From assembly GCF_034048115.1 (NCBI RefSeq), contig NZ_CP139145.1, forward strand, positions 2,108,001-2,172,000: 64,000 nt of DNA, written 5' to 3'. How positions within the stretch are numbered: position 1 is the stretch's first letter; the number at the start of each line of letters is the position of its first letter. Shown here piece after piece: positions 32,482-62,746 of this stretch. The stretch comes from Pseudarthrobacter sp. IC2-21 (GTDB lineage: Bacteria; Actinomycetota; Actinomycetes; Actinomycetales; Micrococcaceae). Position numbers and translations under genes: made by a program. A model generated the notes under the pieces. The model saw only the letters and a list, made by a program, of their open reading frames with translations. It made no database searches and was not told the origin of the DNA.

Positions 32482-34248
<1,767 letters not shown>

Positions 34249-34282: not shown

Positions 34283-34333
34283 CCGCGACGAGGGTGGGCC
34301 TTGAGCTAGATCGCGTCTGAGGCCTCGCCGCGG
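34283..34333 (-). promoter_or_regulatory. Leader RNA stem between the leuA leader peptide and leuA
   Basis: On the minus strand CCGCGGCGAGG (34333-34323) can pair with CCTCGTCGCGG (34293-34283) over 11 bp with one G-U pair. The first arm starts six bases after the last Leu codon of the leader ORF, within the footprint of a ribosome stalled there. No U-run follows, so the effect might be on translation. Confidence 0.5.
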
Positions 34334-34362
34334 CAGCTAAGAAGAAGCAGGTCTGCGCGCAC
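34306..34362 (-). CDS. leuA leader peptide
   Basis: An 18-codon ORF, MRADLLLLSCRGEASDAI, with four consecutive Leu codons (CTG CTT CTT CTT), ends 81 bases before leuA. I chose GTG 34362 because TACTCT lies exactly 6 nt upstream; ATG 34365 would add one residue. The Leu run and position are those of an attenuation sensor: ribosomes stall when charged Leu-tRNA is low. Its beginning matches the leuS leader MRAILLLS. Confidence 0.75.
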   Translation of the reverse strand: MRADLLLLSCRGEASDAI

Positions 34363-34368
34363 CATTTG

Positions 34369-34374
34369 AGAGTA
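34369..34374 (-). promoter_or_regulatory. Candidate -10 box of the leuA leader transcript
   Basis: TACTCT on the minus strand is followed by six bases and then GTG of the leader peptide, giving a leaderless start. Confidence 0.5.
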
Positions 34375-57563: not shown

Positions 57564-60089
57564 CTAGGCCGGAACGATGTTCACCAGCTTAGGCGCCCGG
57601 ACGATCACCGTGCGGATGCCGCGGCCGTCCATGGCACGCTGCACATTTTCGCTGGCCAGGGCCAGTTCGCGCAGTTCGTCCTCGCTGATGTCCGGGGAAA
57701 CTTCGAGCCGGTCGCGGACCTTGCCCTGAACCTGGACCACAGCGGTGACGGTCTCCTGCACCAGGAGTGCATCATCATGGGCGGGCCAGCCCGCGTTCGC
57801 CACGGAGGCGGGGTGGCCGAGGACGTTCCACATGTCCTCTGCGGTGTAGGGCGCAAAGAGGCTCAGGATGACAGCGACGGCCTCCGCGGCTTCCCGGACG
57901 GCGGGGTCAGCTCCGCCGGCTCCCGCGTCTATGGTTTTGCGGGTGGCATTGACGAGTTCCATGAGCTTGGCCACCACCACATTGAACTTGTTGCTGTCCA
58001 GCAGGGCGGCGGCGTCCACGATGGTCCGGTGCGTTACGGACCGCAGTGCGCGGTCACCGGCCCCGGCGTCAGTGCCTGGTTCGCTGCTGACATCCTGCGC
58101 CAGCCGCCAGGCACGGGCGAGGAACTTGGCGGAACCGGACGGCGAAACGTCCGCCCAGTCGACGTCGTCCTCCGGCGGGGAGGCAAAGATCATGGTGAGG
58201 CGGACAGCATCCACACCGTACTTGTCCAACTGCTCGCCGAGGTCAACGCCGTTGCCGAGGGATTTGCTCATGGCTTTGCCGCCGTTGAGGACCTGGCCCT
58301 GGTTCAGGAGCGCACTGAACGGCTCATCGGCGTCGAGCATGCCGAGGTCATGGATGACCTTGGTGAAGAAGCGCGCATACAGCAGGTGCAGGATGGCGTG
58401 CTCCACACCGCCCACATACTGGCCTACCGGCATCCATTCGTTGATCTTCTCGGGGTCGAAGGGGCCCTCGGTGTAATGCGGTGAGACGAAGCGCAGGAAG
58501 TACCAGGACGAATCCACGAAGGTGTCCATGGTGTCCGTATCGCGTTTCGCCGGTCCGTGGCAGTTGGGGCATTCCACGTTGACCCAGGCCTCGGCAGCTG
58601 CCAGCGGCGACGTGCCCTTGGGTGACAGGTCCTCGCCGCGCAGGTCGGCGGGCAGCGTCACGGGCAGCTGCTCGTCCGGAACGGGTACCTCGCCGCAGGA
58701 GGGGCAGTGGATGATCGGGATGGGCGTGCCCCAGAACCGCTGGCGGCTCAGGAGCCAGTCACGGAGCCGGAAGTTGACGAACTTCTCGCCTGTACCCTGC
58801 TTCTCCAGCATGGCGATGGCGGCAGGGATGGCTTCCGTTTTCGGCATGCCGTCCAGGACTCCCGAATTGATCAGGGTCCCCTCCCCTGCCGTGGCTTTGC
58901 CGGACACTGCGGGATCCTCTTCGCCGGTGTCCAGCACCGCACGGACAGGCAGGTCGAAGGTCTTGGCGAAGTCGAGGTCACGCTGATCGTGCGCGGGGAC
59001 GGCCATGATGGCACCGGTGCCGTAATCGGCCAGCACATAGTCCGCGGCCCAGACCGGCAGCTTTTCCCCGTTCAGCGGGTTGATCGCGTAGCGTCCGGTG
59101 AAGACGCCCGTCTTTTCGCGTTCGGTGGACTGGCGTTCGATTTCGCTCAGGGCCTTGACCTGCTCGCGGTACGCGTCCAGGGCGGCGGCGTGCTCGTCCG
59201 TGACGAGCTCGACGGCGATCGGCGCGTCTGCCGCGACCACAAAGAATGTTGCCCCGTACAGGGTGTCCGGGCGGGTGGTGAAGACGGTGACGTCCTTGGC
59301 AGGTTTGCCGCCGGTGGCTTCGATCACAAAGTTGACGTGCGCACCTTCGGAGCGTCCAATCCAGTTCTTCTGCATGGCCAGGACCCGCTCGGGCCAGTGG
59401 CCGCGCAGTTCGTCCATGTCCTCGAGCAGCCGGTCAGCATACTCGGTGATTTTGAAGTACCACTGGTTCAGCGACTTCTTGGTCACCGGGGTGCCGCACC
59501 GTTCGCAGGCGCCGTTGACCACTTGCTCGTTAGCCAGCACGGTCTGGTCCTTCGGGCACCAGTTGACCGGCGAGTCCTTACGGTAGGCCAGCCCGCGCTC
59601 ATAGAAGCGCTTGAACAGCCACTGGGTCCAGCGGTAGTACTCGGGGTCGGAGGTGTGCACCCGCCGCGACCAGTCGGCGGAGATCGCGTAGCGCTTGAAG
59701 GACGCCGCCTGCGTCTCGATGTTGGCGTAGGTCCACTCGCTGGGGTGGGCGTTGCGTTTGATGGCCGCGTTCTCGGCCGGCAGGCCGAAGGAGTCCCAGC
59801 CGATCGGGTGCAGGACGTCAAAGCCCTGCTGCCGCAGGTACCGCGCCACAACATCGCCCATGGCAAACGCCTCGGCGTGGCCCATGTGCAGGTCGCCCGA
59901 GGGGTACGGGAACATGTCAAGGACGTAGCGGCGCTCACGGGAACCATCATCGACGGGGGTGAAGACCTTGAGGTCTTCCCACACCTGCGGCCATTTGGCC
60001 TCCATGGCCGCGAAGCTGTACGCACCCTCTTCGGGTGTCTCCGCCGCTGCTGCCTTTGTTCCGGTCTCTGTCTCCGGCTGAACGCTCAC
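57564..60089 (-). CDS. leuS: Leucyl-tRNA synthetase
   Basis: An 841-residue class I synthetase. The HIGH-type motif is in [15 protein letters not shown], the KMSKS motif in [10 protein letters not shown], and the CP1 editing domain contains [16 protein letters not shown] and [15 protein letters not shown] zinc-type CERCGTP segment is also visible. It starts at GTG 60089 with GAGGG 6 nt upstream; the frame extends upstream through the leader RNA but not into family-like sequence. It is preceded by a leucine leader peptide and an intrinsic terminator, so expression probably responds to Leu-tRNA charging. Confidence 0.97.
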
Positions 60090-60181
60090 TGCTGCCCTCT
60101 TCTGTTCTGTTGCGGCTTCCGTGCTGCCCCAACGGTCTGATCCCTTCCTGCTGCCGGCCCGGCAATCGTGCCCGGACACAC

Positions 60182-60205
60182 AAAAGCCCCTCTAAAGGGA
60201 GGGGC
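60182..60205 (-). terminator. Attenuator terminator upstream of leuS
   Basis: On the minus strand GCCCCTC-CCTTTA-GAGGGGC is followed by TTTTG. A 7-bp GC stem plus U-run inside the leuS leader and after a Leu-rich ORF is the classic form of a transcription attenuator. It is not needed to end glpK, which has its own hairpin. Confidence 0.75.
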
Positions 60206-60245
60206 GGCCGCTCGGCTGTCCGGTTTGTTTCCGGAGACCGGGCGG

Positions 60246-60272
60246 CTAGCTAAGCAGAAGGATCGCACGCAT
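60246..60272 (-). CDS. leuS leader peptide
   Basis: An 8-codon ORF, MRAILLLS followed by TAG, with three consecutive Leu codons (CTT CTG CTT). TAAAGT lies exactly 6 nt before its ATG, implying a leaderless start. The stop is followed by stem-loops and an intrinsic terminator before leuS. Together these support leucine-responsive attenuation. Its opening resembles the leuA leader MRADLLLLS. Confidence 0.75.
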   Translation of the reverse strand: MRAILLLS

Positions 60273-60278
60273 ACGACT

Positions 60279-60284
60279 ACTTTA
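60279..60284 (-). promoter_or_regulatory. Candidate -10 box of the leuS leader transcript
   Basis: TAAAGT on the minus strand, six bases before the leader peptide ATG. The -35 region is not clear. Confidence 0.5.
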
Positions 60285-60351
60285 GCGCACCCATCCTCCC
60301 ACCTCAGCGCAGGTCGCCACGAGCGGAATGAAGGACCGGACCCGACGCGAA

Positions 60352-60421
60352 AGAGGGGCCGGTGACTCCCCGCCATGGTGTGGTGGGCACCGCGAAGCGG
60401 GCGGGAGTCACCGGCCCCTCT
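60352..60421 (-). terminator. Long hairpin after glpK
   Basis: AGAGGGGCCGGTGACTCCC and GGGAGTCACCGGCCCCTCT are perfect 19-bp arms separated by 32 bases, starting 14 bases past the glpK stop. A short TT-TCG tail follows on the minus strand. This is probably the end of the glp operon transcript. Confidence 0.8.
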
Positions 60422-60435
60422 GCCGGGGCCTCTGG

Positions 60436-61950
60436 CTACTTCACGTCCTCGTCGACCCAGTCCATGGATTTCGTGACGGCCTTCTTCCACAGCCGCATCT
60501 GGCGGTCCTGCTCGGCCTGGTCCATCTGCGGTTCCCAGCGCTTGTCTTCAGACCAGTTGGCCGAAAGTTCGCCGAGGTCCTTCCAGAAGCCGACGGCGAG
60601 GCCAGCCGCGTAGGCTGCACCCAGGGCAGTGGTTTCAATCACCTTGGGCCGGATGACCGGGACGCCCAGGATGTCCGCCTGGAACTGCATCAGCGCATCG
60701 TTGGCCACCATGCCGCCGTCGACCTTCAGCTCCGTCAGCGGAACACCGGAGTCCGCGTTGACGGCGTCCAGCACCTCGCGGGTCTGGAATGCCGTTGATT
60801 CAAGCGCGGCGCGGGCGATGTGGCTCTTGTTGACGAACCGCGTGAGCCCAACAATGGCGCCACGGGCATCGGAGCGCCAGTACGGGGCGAACAGGCCGGA
60901 GAAGGCCGGCACAATGTAGACGCCGCCGTTGTCCTTGACCGAGGCGGCCAGGGTCTCCACTTCCGGCGCGCTGCTGATCATGCCGAGGTTGTCGCGCAGC
61001 CACTGGATCAGGGACCCGGTCACCGCGATGGATCCTTCCAGGGCGTAGTGGGTGGGGGCATCGCCGAGCTTGTATCCCACCGTGGTGAGCAGGCCGTTCT
61101 TCGAGTGGATGATCTCCTCGCCGGTGTTGAAGATGAGGAAGCAGCCGGTGCCGTACGTGTTCTTGGCTTCGCCGGCGTCGAATGCCGCCTGGCCGAACGT
61201 GGCCGCCTGCTGGTCACCGAGGATGCCCGCCACGGGGACTTCGCGCAGCAGTTGGGAGGTATGCACGGTGCCGTAGACCTCGGAGGAGGATTTGATCGCG
61301 GGCATCATGCTCAGCGGAACACCGAAAACACCCAGGATTTCCTCATCCCATGTGAGCGTCTCCAAGTCCATGAACAGGGTGCGGGAGGCGTTGGTGACGT
61401 CGGTGACGTGCACCCCGCCGTCCACCCCGCCGGTCAGGTTCCACAGAACCCACGAGTCGGTGTTGCCGAAGACAAGGTCCCCTGCCTCCGCCTTTGCCCG
61501 GGCGCCATCAACGTTGTCCAGGATCCACTTGATCTTGGTGCCGGAGAAGTAGGTGGCCAGCGGCAGGCCCACCTTCTGTTTGAACCGTTCCGGTCCGCCA
61601 TCCTTCGCCAGTTCATCGACGATGTTCTGGGTGCGGGTGTCCTGCCACACAATCGCGTTGTAGACCGGTTTGCCCGTGGTCTTGTCCCATACCACCGCGG
61701 TCTCGCGCTGGTTGGTGATGCCGACGGCGGCAATATCGTGCCGCGTCAGGTTCGCCTTCGAAAGGGCTGAACCGATCACCTCGCGGGTGTTGTTCCAAAT
61801 CTCCGAGGCGTCATGCTCCACCCAGCCTGCCTGCGGGAAGATCTGTTCGTGCTCCATCTGCCCGGATGAAACGATGTTGCCGCTGTGGTCGAAAATGATG
61901 GCGCGGGAACTGGTGGTGCCCTGGTCGATGGCGATTACGTACTGGTTCAT
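60436..61950 (-). CDS. glpK: Glycerol kinase
   Basis: A 504-residue FGGY-family kinase that makes glycerol-3-phosphate from glycerol taken up by GlpF. Landmarks: the N-terminal phosphate loop [55 protein letters not shown] and [19 protein letters not shown]. It starts at ATG 61950; the open frame continues upstream only as antisense-like sequence within glpF. It is the last gene of glpD-glpF-glpK and lies 43 bases after glpF. Confidence 0.97.
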
Positions 61951-61993
61951 GGTGACGTCCTTGTCTGTGTACAGGGGTTTGGTGGCTGGTCGA

Positions 61994-62746
61994 TCAGGAT
62001 GCTGCGGTGACGATGATGGGAACAACCCTGGCCATGATTCCGCCCAGGGCTCCACCCACCAGCGGTCCAACGACGGGAATCCACGAGTAGGCCCAGTCGC
62101 TGCTTCCTTTGCCCTTGATGGGCAGCAGGGCATGGGCGATGCGCGGACCGAGGTCACGGGCGGGGTTGATGGCGTAGCCGGTGGGACCGCCCAGGGAAAC
62201 GCCGATGCCAACCACCAGCAGGGCTACTGCCAGGGGGCCCAGCCCTGAGGGGGTGCCGCCCAGGGTCAGGATGACGAAGACCAGGACGAAGGTGCCGATG
62301 ATCTCGGTGATCAGGTTCCACGGGTTGGAGCGGATGGCCGGGCCGGTGGAGAATACGCCGAGTTTGGAGGCCTGGGCAGGCTCGTCATCGAAGTGCTGCT
62401 TGTAGGCGAGCCAGCAGACAACTGCGCCGAGGAAGGCGCCCAGCAGTTCGGCGCCGAAGTAGGTCAGGGTGGATGCCACATCCACCTTGACGCCGGGGGC
62501 GTATTCGGCTTTGCCGTTCACCAGCAGGCCCAGTGTTACGGCGGGATTGAGGTGGGCACCGGACTTTGCGGCAACAAATACGCCCGAGAAGACGGCGATG
62601 CCCCACCCCCACGTGACCATCAGGAACCCGCCGCTGTTACCTTTCGTGCCCCTCAGGGCCACGTTGGCCACGACACCGCAACCGAGCAGGGTGAGCATCG
62701 CGGTTCCGAAGACTTCGGAGAGAAAAACTATTCCAAGAGACATCAT
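61994..62746 (-). CDS. glpF: Glycerol uptake facilitator (aquaglyceroporin)
   Basis: A 250-residue MIP channel with six helices and two half-helices. The NPA motifs are in [13 protein letters not shown] and [12 protein letters not shown]. The Asp after the second NPAR is typical of glycerol facilitators rather than strict aquaporins. It starts at ATG 62746 or 62743, with AAGGAG upstream. It sits between glpD and glpK, so glycerol uptake and phosphorylation are co-transcribed. Confidence 0.95.

What the first reader, a model, noticed from the sequence alone, without database searches (positions are those of the whole stretch)
60182..60284. leuS is preceded by a leucine attenuator with a leaderless 8-codon leader peptide
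Seen on the minus strand in order: TAAAGT, six bases, the ORF MRAILLLS with three consecutive Leu codons and a stop, a GC-rich stem-loop built around TCCGG/CCGGA, and then a 7-bp GC stem with TTTT, still 92 bases before the leuS start. This is the arrangement of ribosome-mediated attenuation. It is unusual because the target is a tRNA synthetase, where T-boxes are better known, and because the sensor ORF appears to start at the first base of the RNA. A clear antiterminator pairing was not found by eye.
Basis: partly seen in the sequence, partly recalled or inferred. Interest (0 to 1): 0.75.

Follow-up and report, generated by a model that had tools for sequence, protein, structure and literature searches.

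The report
Leucine-sensing leader before leuS gene
Just before the gene that loads leucine onto its tRNA, this soil bacterium carries a tiny leucine-rich leader gene and two hairpins that probably switch the main gene on when leucine runs short; the arrangement is known from Streptomyces, but its two hairpins touch without sharing a strand, so the usual on/off pairing is missing.

Summary
On the minus strand: TAAAGT, 6 nt, the ORF MRAILLLS*, a hairpin (P1), a terminator (T) and leuS. It is no chance ORF: all 40 sampled genus loci have it (one with a Leu replaced), as do 35 of 60 loci from other genera of the family; a covariance model matches 96 of 296 class genomes (at least six are ilvB-type). 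In 139 of 139 leaders with a three-Leu run the start codon lies 6-7 nt after TANNNT, so the transcript is very probably leaderless.

The kind is known: leuS attenuators were predicted in Streptomyces in 2005, and S. lividans leuL2 (MRAVRLLLSEPR) was reported leaderless in 2021.

What stands out: P1 sits 0-2 nt upstream of T in 155 of 158 leaders. Unlike E. coli thr/leu/trp and Streptomyces trp-type leaders folded the same way, a ribosome stalled at the first Leu codon leaves the terminator's 5' arm free (medians 0.000-0.002). I find no overlapping antiterminator. Best reading: Leu-stalled ribosomes allow P1, which, flush against T, hinders its completion. That last step is inferred, not shown.

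The parts
60279..60284 (-). -10 hexamer TAAAGT, 6 nt before the ORF start
   Evidence: TANNNT at 6 or 7 nt before the start in 139 of 139 leaders with a three-Leu run
60246..60272 (-). leader ORF MRAILLLS*, Leu codons CTT CTG CTT; start codon is the inferred first base of the RNA
   Evidence: leaderless start reported for the S. lividans counterpart (PMC8079986)
60207..60246 (-). P1 hairpin; its 5' arm begins 14 nt after the first base of the first Leu codon, just beyond the expected edge of a ribosome stalled there
   Evidence: fold; changes on both sides in 6 of 7 counted P1 pairs in A1 and 5 of 7 in A3; register
60206..60206 (-). single-base spacer between P1 and the terminator
   Evidence: spacer 0-1 nt in 140 of 158 and 0-2 nt in 155 of 158 leaders
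60186..60205 (-). terminator hairpin T, GCCCCTC...GAGGGGC
   Evidence: five of six counted pairs invariant in 61 family sequences
60177..60185 (-). U-tract TTTTGTGTG
   Evidence: conserved in A1
57564..60089 (-). leuS, leucine--tRNA ligase (target gene)
   Evidence: TIGR00396, E 1.6e-291

Best explanation
It is a leucine-responsive leader-peptide attenuator of leuS. RNA polymerase starts at the ATG of an 8-codon ORF (reported for the S. lividans counterpart, inferred here from the -10 spacing). With enough Leu-tRNA the ribosome runs to the stop codon and covers the 5' arm of P1, so P1 cannot form; T forms and transcription stops before leuS. When Leu-tRNA is short the ribosome halts at the Leu codons, its front edge ends just before P1, and P1 folds. 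P1 then lets polymerase pass T, so leuS is made. P1 does not pair with T. The inferred step is that a stable P1 lying 0-2 nt from the base of T stops T from closing fully inside the polymerase exit channel. My odds: sensing of Leu by translation of the ORF with control at T about 0.8; P1 acting by abutment rather than pairing about 0.4.
For: Conservation of ORF, Leu run, -10 spacing, P1 and T. Covariation in P1 against shuffles and slid controls. Leu1-to-P1 distance 13-14 nt in 130 of 158 leaders (20 of the other 28 had no Leu run by the rule), while the P1 region ranges from 20 to 64 nt. P1-T spacer 0-2 nt in 155 of 158; at most 1 nt in 90.6% of 138 real against 39.1% of shuffled segments. 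T's 5' arm not sequestered in the stalled state (138 of 138 at or below 0.145), against 0.60-0.82 in four E. coli leaders and 0.63-0.87 in five of six Streptomyces trp-type leaders (the sixth was misread). Rare CTT codons in the Leu run (CTT is 22 of 291 Leu codons in six window genes). leuS recognised downstream at 28 of 29 loci. Published leaderless start of S. lividans leuL2.
Against: No experiment in this genus. Equilibrium folding gives T near 1 in nearly all leaders in both ribosome states, and also in the E. coli controls, so folding does not prove the switch. With the ribosome at the stop codon T's 5' arm is more occupied (medians 0.33 and 0.26; above 0.5 in 21 of 65 and 9 of 73) than in the stalled state, the wrong direction for a pairing switch. 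Codon changes in the S. coelicolor ilvB leader had no effect, as cited in PMC1262725, and ilvB leaders have a related layout. T's near-invariant sequence in the family is not explained by a plain terminator. 16 of 60 sampled loci from other family genera show neither ORF nor terminator motif by my rules, and 200 of 296 class genomes gave no hit.
Confidence: 0.6

Rival explanations
1. Classical attenuation: a P1-like antiterminator overlaps the terminator's 5' arm and the two exclude each other by base pairing, as in trp or thr operons.
For: PMC1262725 calls the Streptomyces leuS leaders classical, with antiterminator and terminator hairpins (its Figure 4 is not held, so I could not see the pairs).
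Against: In 138 leaders folded up to the terminator loop with a ribosome at Leu1, the terminator 5' arm is paired upstream with probability at most 0.145; four E. coli leaders give 0.60-0.82 and five Streptomyces trp-type leaders 0.63-0.87. P1 and T share no base.
Confidence: 0.12
2. The leader ORF is conserved, but the Leu codons are not the sensor; a protein or another factor acts on P1/T, or the codons tune translation only.
For: Codon mutations in the S. coelicolor ilvB leader had no effect, as cited in PMC1262725; ilvB-type leaders of other lineages have a related P1-T layout. T is nearly invariant in sequence in the family.
Against: The residue in the run matches the target: Leu for leuS and leuA, Ile/Val/Leu for ilvB; the Leu1-P1 register is nearly fixed while P1 changes size.
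Confidence: 0.12
3. Control is at translation: the pyrimidine-rich Leu run pairs with the leuS ribosome-binding site, as proposed for the leuA LEU element.
For: Such pairing is described for leuA (PMC1262725); the leuS and leuA leaders of this window resemble each other. I did not test this pairing for leuS.
Against: A conserved U-tract terminator lies between them; the related idea that T's GAGGGG is the ribosome site of an in-frame leuS start fails, because the frame to leuS varies.
Confidence: 0.1
4. Reverse logic: P1 stacks on T and helps it, so stalling lowers leuS.
For: T's 5' arm is freest in the stalled state; hairpins with a 0-1 nt gap could stack.
Against: It would reduce the synthetase just when charging fails; the competing pairing in the stop state is only partial.
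Confidence: 0.05
5. Chance ORF beside an ordinary terminator.
For: Eight codons are few.
Against: 40 of 40 genus loci and covariation.
Confidence: 0.01

Closest known systems
leuL2-leuS leader of Streptomyces lividans (PMC8079986) and the predicted leuS attenuators of S. avermitilis and S. coelicolor (PMC1262725)
   Same: Leaderless Leu-rich leader ORF before leuS followed by a hairpin and a U-tract; the model built from the window's family finds leaders in Streptomyces genomes, many encoding exactly MRAVRLLLSEPR.
   Different: Here the ORF is 8 codons and stops at TAG just before P1; in Streptomyces it runs on 4 codons past the Leu run into P1's 5' arm and stops at TGA.
Classical trp/thr/leu/his operon attenuators
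   Same: Short ORF rich in the regulated amino acid, terminator, ribosome position as signal.
   Different: No antiterminator found that shares the terminator's 5' arm; leaderless start; target is a tRNA synthetase.
LEU element before leuA in Actinobacteria (PMC1262725)
   Same: Leu run in a short leader ORF; the leuA leader of this window has LLLLS and CTT codons too.
   Different: leuA leaders are described without an obvious terminator and as forming a pseudoknot.
Actinobacterial ilvB leaders
   Same: Short ORF just after a -10-like site, P1 close to T.
   Different: Ile/Val/Leu codons; longer T; target acetolactate synthase; in three of six, P1 reaches slightly into T's 5' arm (0.27-0.28).
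T-box leaders
   Same: Regulate tRNA synthetase genes by tRNA charging (recalled and PMC1262725).
   Different: No Rfam T-box match; sensing here is through a translated ORF.

Membership tests
Actinobacterial leuS leader (leuL2 type) | Leu-run leader ORF upstream of leuS | tested here: met
   40 of 40 genus loci (one with Leu-Val-Leu) and 35 of 60 other family loci
Actinobacterial leuS leader (leuL2 type) | leaderless transcription | tested here: inconclusive
   -10 spacing of 6-7 nt in 139 of 139 fits; no 5'-end map for this genus
Actinobacterial leuS leader (leuL2 type) | hairpin and U-tract terminator before leuS | tested here: met
Classical ribosome-mediated transcription attenuator | leader ORF with a run of the cognate amino acid | tested here: met
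Classical ribosome-mediated transcription attenuator | antiterminator overlapping the terminator's 5' arm | tested here: not met
   at most 0.145 sequestered in 138 of 138 leaders when stalled; four E. coli and five Streptomyces trp-type controls 0.60-0.87
Classical ribosome-mediated transcription attenuator | response to amino acid limitation | not testable with these tools
   needs expression data
T-box leader | T-box covariance model match | tested here: not met
   no match at gathering threshold in the window nor among matches at E<=5 in 58000-62500
LEU element | pseudoknot and Leu run pairing with the target's SD | not tested
   only the sequence resemblance of the two leaders was seen

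The most novel reading that the evidence does not exclude
A phylum-wide class of leaderless attenuators (leuS, and in part ilvB in some lineages) in which a ribosome-gated hairpin prevents termination not by pairing with the terminator but by lying flush against its base, so that the two helices cannot both fit in the polymerase exit channel.
Probability: 0.35. Interest if true: 0.75.

Novelty: new variant of a known kind. Interest (0 to 1): 0.48.

Why it matters
Attenuation is a textbook case of switching by mutually exclusive base pairing. If hairpin abutment can do the same job, terminators with a gated hairpin directly upstream would need re-reading in many high-GC genomes, and searches for attenuators that demand overlapping stems would miss them. 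The element is also a compact RNA family with no match in the Rfam scans done here, and it offers a one-change test (lengthen the spacer).

Tried and rejected
Equilibrium folding of the whole leader as a test for the switch was dropped, because it gave terminator probability near 1 in nearly all leaders in each state, also for the four E. coli controls; it was replaced by folding only up to the terminator loop. In that test E. coli his did not change between states (0.81 stalled, 0.80 at stop), and the terminator of one of six Streptomyces trp-type leaders (L330) was picked wrongly and is not counted. Those six were found by a WWW pattern like S. lividans trpL1; the gene downstream was not checked.

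The idea that T's GAGGGG is a Shine-Dalgarno sequence for a start in the U-tract, in frame with leuS, was rejected. The script counted 45 of 75 with an open in-frame start (the window's own row was computed wrongly there, though one search shows an in-frame GTG at 60179), but the tail usually offers starts in all three frames, and which one is in frame varies between relatives. In many class loci leuS has its own start further on. Pairing of Leu codons with T's 3' arm was considered on paper only; it has the wrong sign and must beat a local hairpin.

A generic terminator sequence was rejected. Rfam hits mir-4891, snoZ206, mir-557 and P10 lie below their gathering scores and are taken as chance.

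Six class hits of the model (L272, L289, L295, L315, L318, L319) carry ilvB-type leaders. For larger stretches of the same six genomes, five of six long downstream ORFs look like acetolactate synthase by eye; for L337 the printed frame did not. In that script one leader ORF (L335) was misplaced and three terminators (L336-L338) were only partly recognised, so the ilvB comparison is rough. These six were left out of A3 and, but are included's 86 class rows; one (L318) is in the 138.

My rule for the third Leu codon excluded CTG, so its CTT counts are biased; read from A1 without that rule CTT stands there in 54 of 61. The codon usage read glpK out of frame; one search corrects it (CTT 22 of 291).

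Full report
WHAT IS THERE. One search shows on the minus strand TAAAGT (60284-60279), six bases, the ORF ATG CGT GCG ATC CTT CTG CTT AGC TAG (60272-60246), and then two hairpins. One base later comes the terminator T (60205-60186) with TTTTGTGTG. The fold has -42.4 kcal/mol against a shuffled mean of -33.9. leuS begins at GTG 60089 and matches TIGR00396 far above its cutoff. Upstream on the same strand lies glpK, followed by a very long hairpin, so read-through from glpK is unlikely (inference).

IS IT MORE THAN CHANCE. A scan for the same arrangement finds two cases in the window and a mean of 0.1 per shuffled window over 40 shuffles. I searched LeuS in 150 genomes of the genus and 197 of the family, and fetched the upstream regions of 100 of the listed matches: 40 of the genus and 60 from other genera of the family; genera whose matches were not listed are not sampled. 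By a rule that knows only ORF length and Leu content, 39 of 40 genus loci carry MRAILLLS or a near variant; the fortieth (L021) has MRAILVLS* 6 nt after TAGAGT. Of the 60 others, 35 have the ORF by that rule, all with a terminator motif (some have only two adjacent Leu codons, and L089 has no P1). Nine more have a GGGG[CT]TTT terminator motif without an ORF that passes the rule, and 16 have neither (L079 is cut short). The genus contains Arthrobacter: a contig of G051 has the length of an Arthrobacter bambusae contig found by pattern; this is an inference from equal lengths.

HOW WIDE. A covariance model (R1) from 61 family leaders (A1) matches 96 of 296 genomes of the class, 39 of 114 genera. 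I held 90 of the 97 matches: 30 as loci and 60. Six of these are ilvB-type. leuS was recognised downstream at 28 of the 29 loci examined (two of the 29 are of the window's genus); the exception, L140, is a short stretch. For the 60 the downstream gene was not examined, except that larger stretches of the six ilvB-type ones were read. Many hits are Streptomyces (names by equal contig length), and most of these ORFs read MRAVRLLLSEPR. A second model (R2, 80 leaders) found 20 of 346 genomes drawn over the phylum, 5 of them outside the class. All five have a LLL leader, and in 4 of 5 leuS was recognised downstream. Rfam has no match at gathering threshold in the window and none at E<=1 in six relatives; four weak chance-like matches near leuS lie below threshold.

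LEADERLESS START. For 139 leaders with a three-codon Leu run (67 family, window included, and 72 others; 17 leaders without such a run and the six ilvB-type ones were left out of 162) the start codon lies 6 nt (114) or 7 nt (25) after TANNNT. For the family rows the -10 was not part of the selection, though the script prefers a start that has one; the class rows were found with a model that includes the -10 region. Start codons are ATG (109) or GTG (30). PMC8079986 (passages read) reports the S. lividans leuL2 leader as leaderless.

TWO FORMS, ONE REGISTER. In the family the ORF mostly stops one codon after the Leu run (60 of 67); in most other leaders it stops four codons after it (56 of 72), inside P1's 5' arm. 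In both forms P1's 5' arm begins 13-14 nt after the first base of the first Leu codon in most leaders (63 of 72 family and 67 of 86 class rows; in 20 rows no run was found). From established knowledge of ribosome footprints (recalled) this is about the front edge of a ribosome waiting at that codon. A ribosome at the stop would cover P1's 5' arm in both forms. P1 itself ranges widely: 20 to 64 nt from that point to T, median 39.

P1 IS A REAL HELIX. In A1 six of seven counted P1 pairs show changes on both sides, and cells paired are 97.8% against 94.1% in shuffles and 42-53% when slid. In A3, five of seven P1 pairs and four of six T pairs do; A2 agrees. A2 and A3 were fitted to the model structure and lean towards it; A1 was not. 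In the family T hardly varies: five of six pairs are invariant in 61 sequences.

NO OVERLAPPING ANTITERMINATOR FOUND. I folded each leader from the ribosome edge to the terminator loop, before the 3' arm exists, and asked how much of T's 5' arm is paired upstream. With the ribosome at the first codon of the run: E. coli thr 0.82, leu 0.60, trp 0.71, his 0.81; with it at the stop 0.00, 0.01, 0.01 and 0.80 (his does not switch in this test). Five of six Streptomyces trp-type leaders give 0.63-0.87 stalled and 0.08-0.37 at stop (the terminator of the sixth was misread). The leuS-type leaders give medians 0.000 (65 family) and 0.002 (73 class), maximum 0.145, when stalled, and 0.33 and 0.26 at stop, with 21 of 65 and 9 of 73 above 0.5 at stop. 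So the classical pairing is absent, and what competition exists has the opposite sign. Full-length equilibrium folding cannot decide.

THE HELICES ABUT. The gap between P1 and T is 0-1 nt in 140 of 158 and 0-2 nt in 155 of 158 leaders (four of 162 had no T or no P1 by the rule; six of the 158 are ilvB-type). The base in one-nt gaps varies (43 C, 33 G, 3 T, 1 A). On 138 leaders, at most 1 nt occurs in 90.6% against 39.1% after shuffling the segment. A nearly fixed gap with a free base speaks for geometry rather than pairing. In the ilvB-type leaders the picture is mixed: three of six show 0.27-0.28 of T's 5' arm paired, three 0.004 or less. PMC6624301 (passages) describes a phage protein that blocks termination by keeping the terminator hairpin out of the exit channel; this makes a steric block of T plausible, but it is an analogy.

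HOW IT MOST LIKELY WORKS. Shown: the parts, their conservation, the register, the abutment, and the lack of a classical antiterminator in these folds. Inferred: leaderless start in this genus, Leu sensing, termination at T, and P1 as the element that lets polymerase pass. The direction (more leuS when Leu-tRNA is short) is assumed from the role of LeuS.

WHAT IS KNOWN. PMC1262725 (text parts 1 and 2 of 3 read, figures not held) predicts classical leuS attenuators in S. avermitilis and S. coelicolor, and cites that codon changes in the S. coelicolor ilvB leader had no effect. PMC8079986 (passages) gives leuL2. PMC5784534, PMC3896937 and PMC4046766 (passages) treat leuA, ilvB, trp or his leaders in corynebacteria; no leuS leader appeared in the passages seen. 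My searches list no study of this leader in Arthrobacter or of abutting hairpins; the library lacks most subscription journals.

VERDICT. A real, conserved leader of a kind known from Streptomyces, in a genus where I found no description, with a feature of the family that classical attenuation does not explain.

Noticed in passing
window 34306-34374, minus strand: A second leaderless-looking Leu leader: TACTCT, 6 nt, GTG ORF VRADLLLLSCRGEASDAI*, upstream of leuA (32482-34224, 2-isopropylmalate synthase). It resembles the published leuL1 leader MRFGLLLLSCRGEGL; its CTT CTT CTT AGC TGCCGC resembles the leuS leader's CTT CTG CTT AGC TAGCCGC, perhaps common descent.
   Followed up: partly
window 60177-60190 and relatives: The U-tract ends in a conserved TG about 9 nt after GGGG in many leaders, which fits the elemental pause signal G-10, Y-1 G+1 (PMC12288461 passages); a (T/C)CCG often follows beyond the termination point.
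   Followed up: no
leader Leu run, relatives: The third Leu codon is CTT in 54 of 61 rows of A1 although CTT is 22 of 291 Leu codons in six window genes; rare-codon sensing or a pairing constraint.
   Followed up: partly
L335-L340: ilvB-type leaders in other lineages with P1 also close to T, found by the leuS model.
   Followed up: partly
L087, L088, L090: Some relatives keep an ORF-like stretch and T but with a single Leu (for example MYSQRDLA*), apparently decaying leaders.
   Followed up: no
L345: Leader MSQNLLLT* with P1 and T outside the class; no LeuS match within about 1 kb.
   Followed up: no
window 60335-60440, minus strand: Very long hairpin after glpK (-67.4 kcal/mol for 110 nt), likely its terminator; Rfam's weak mir-4891 hit lies on it.
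   Followed up: no
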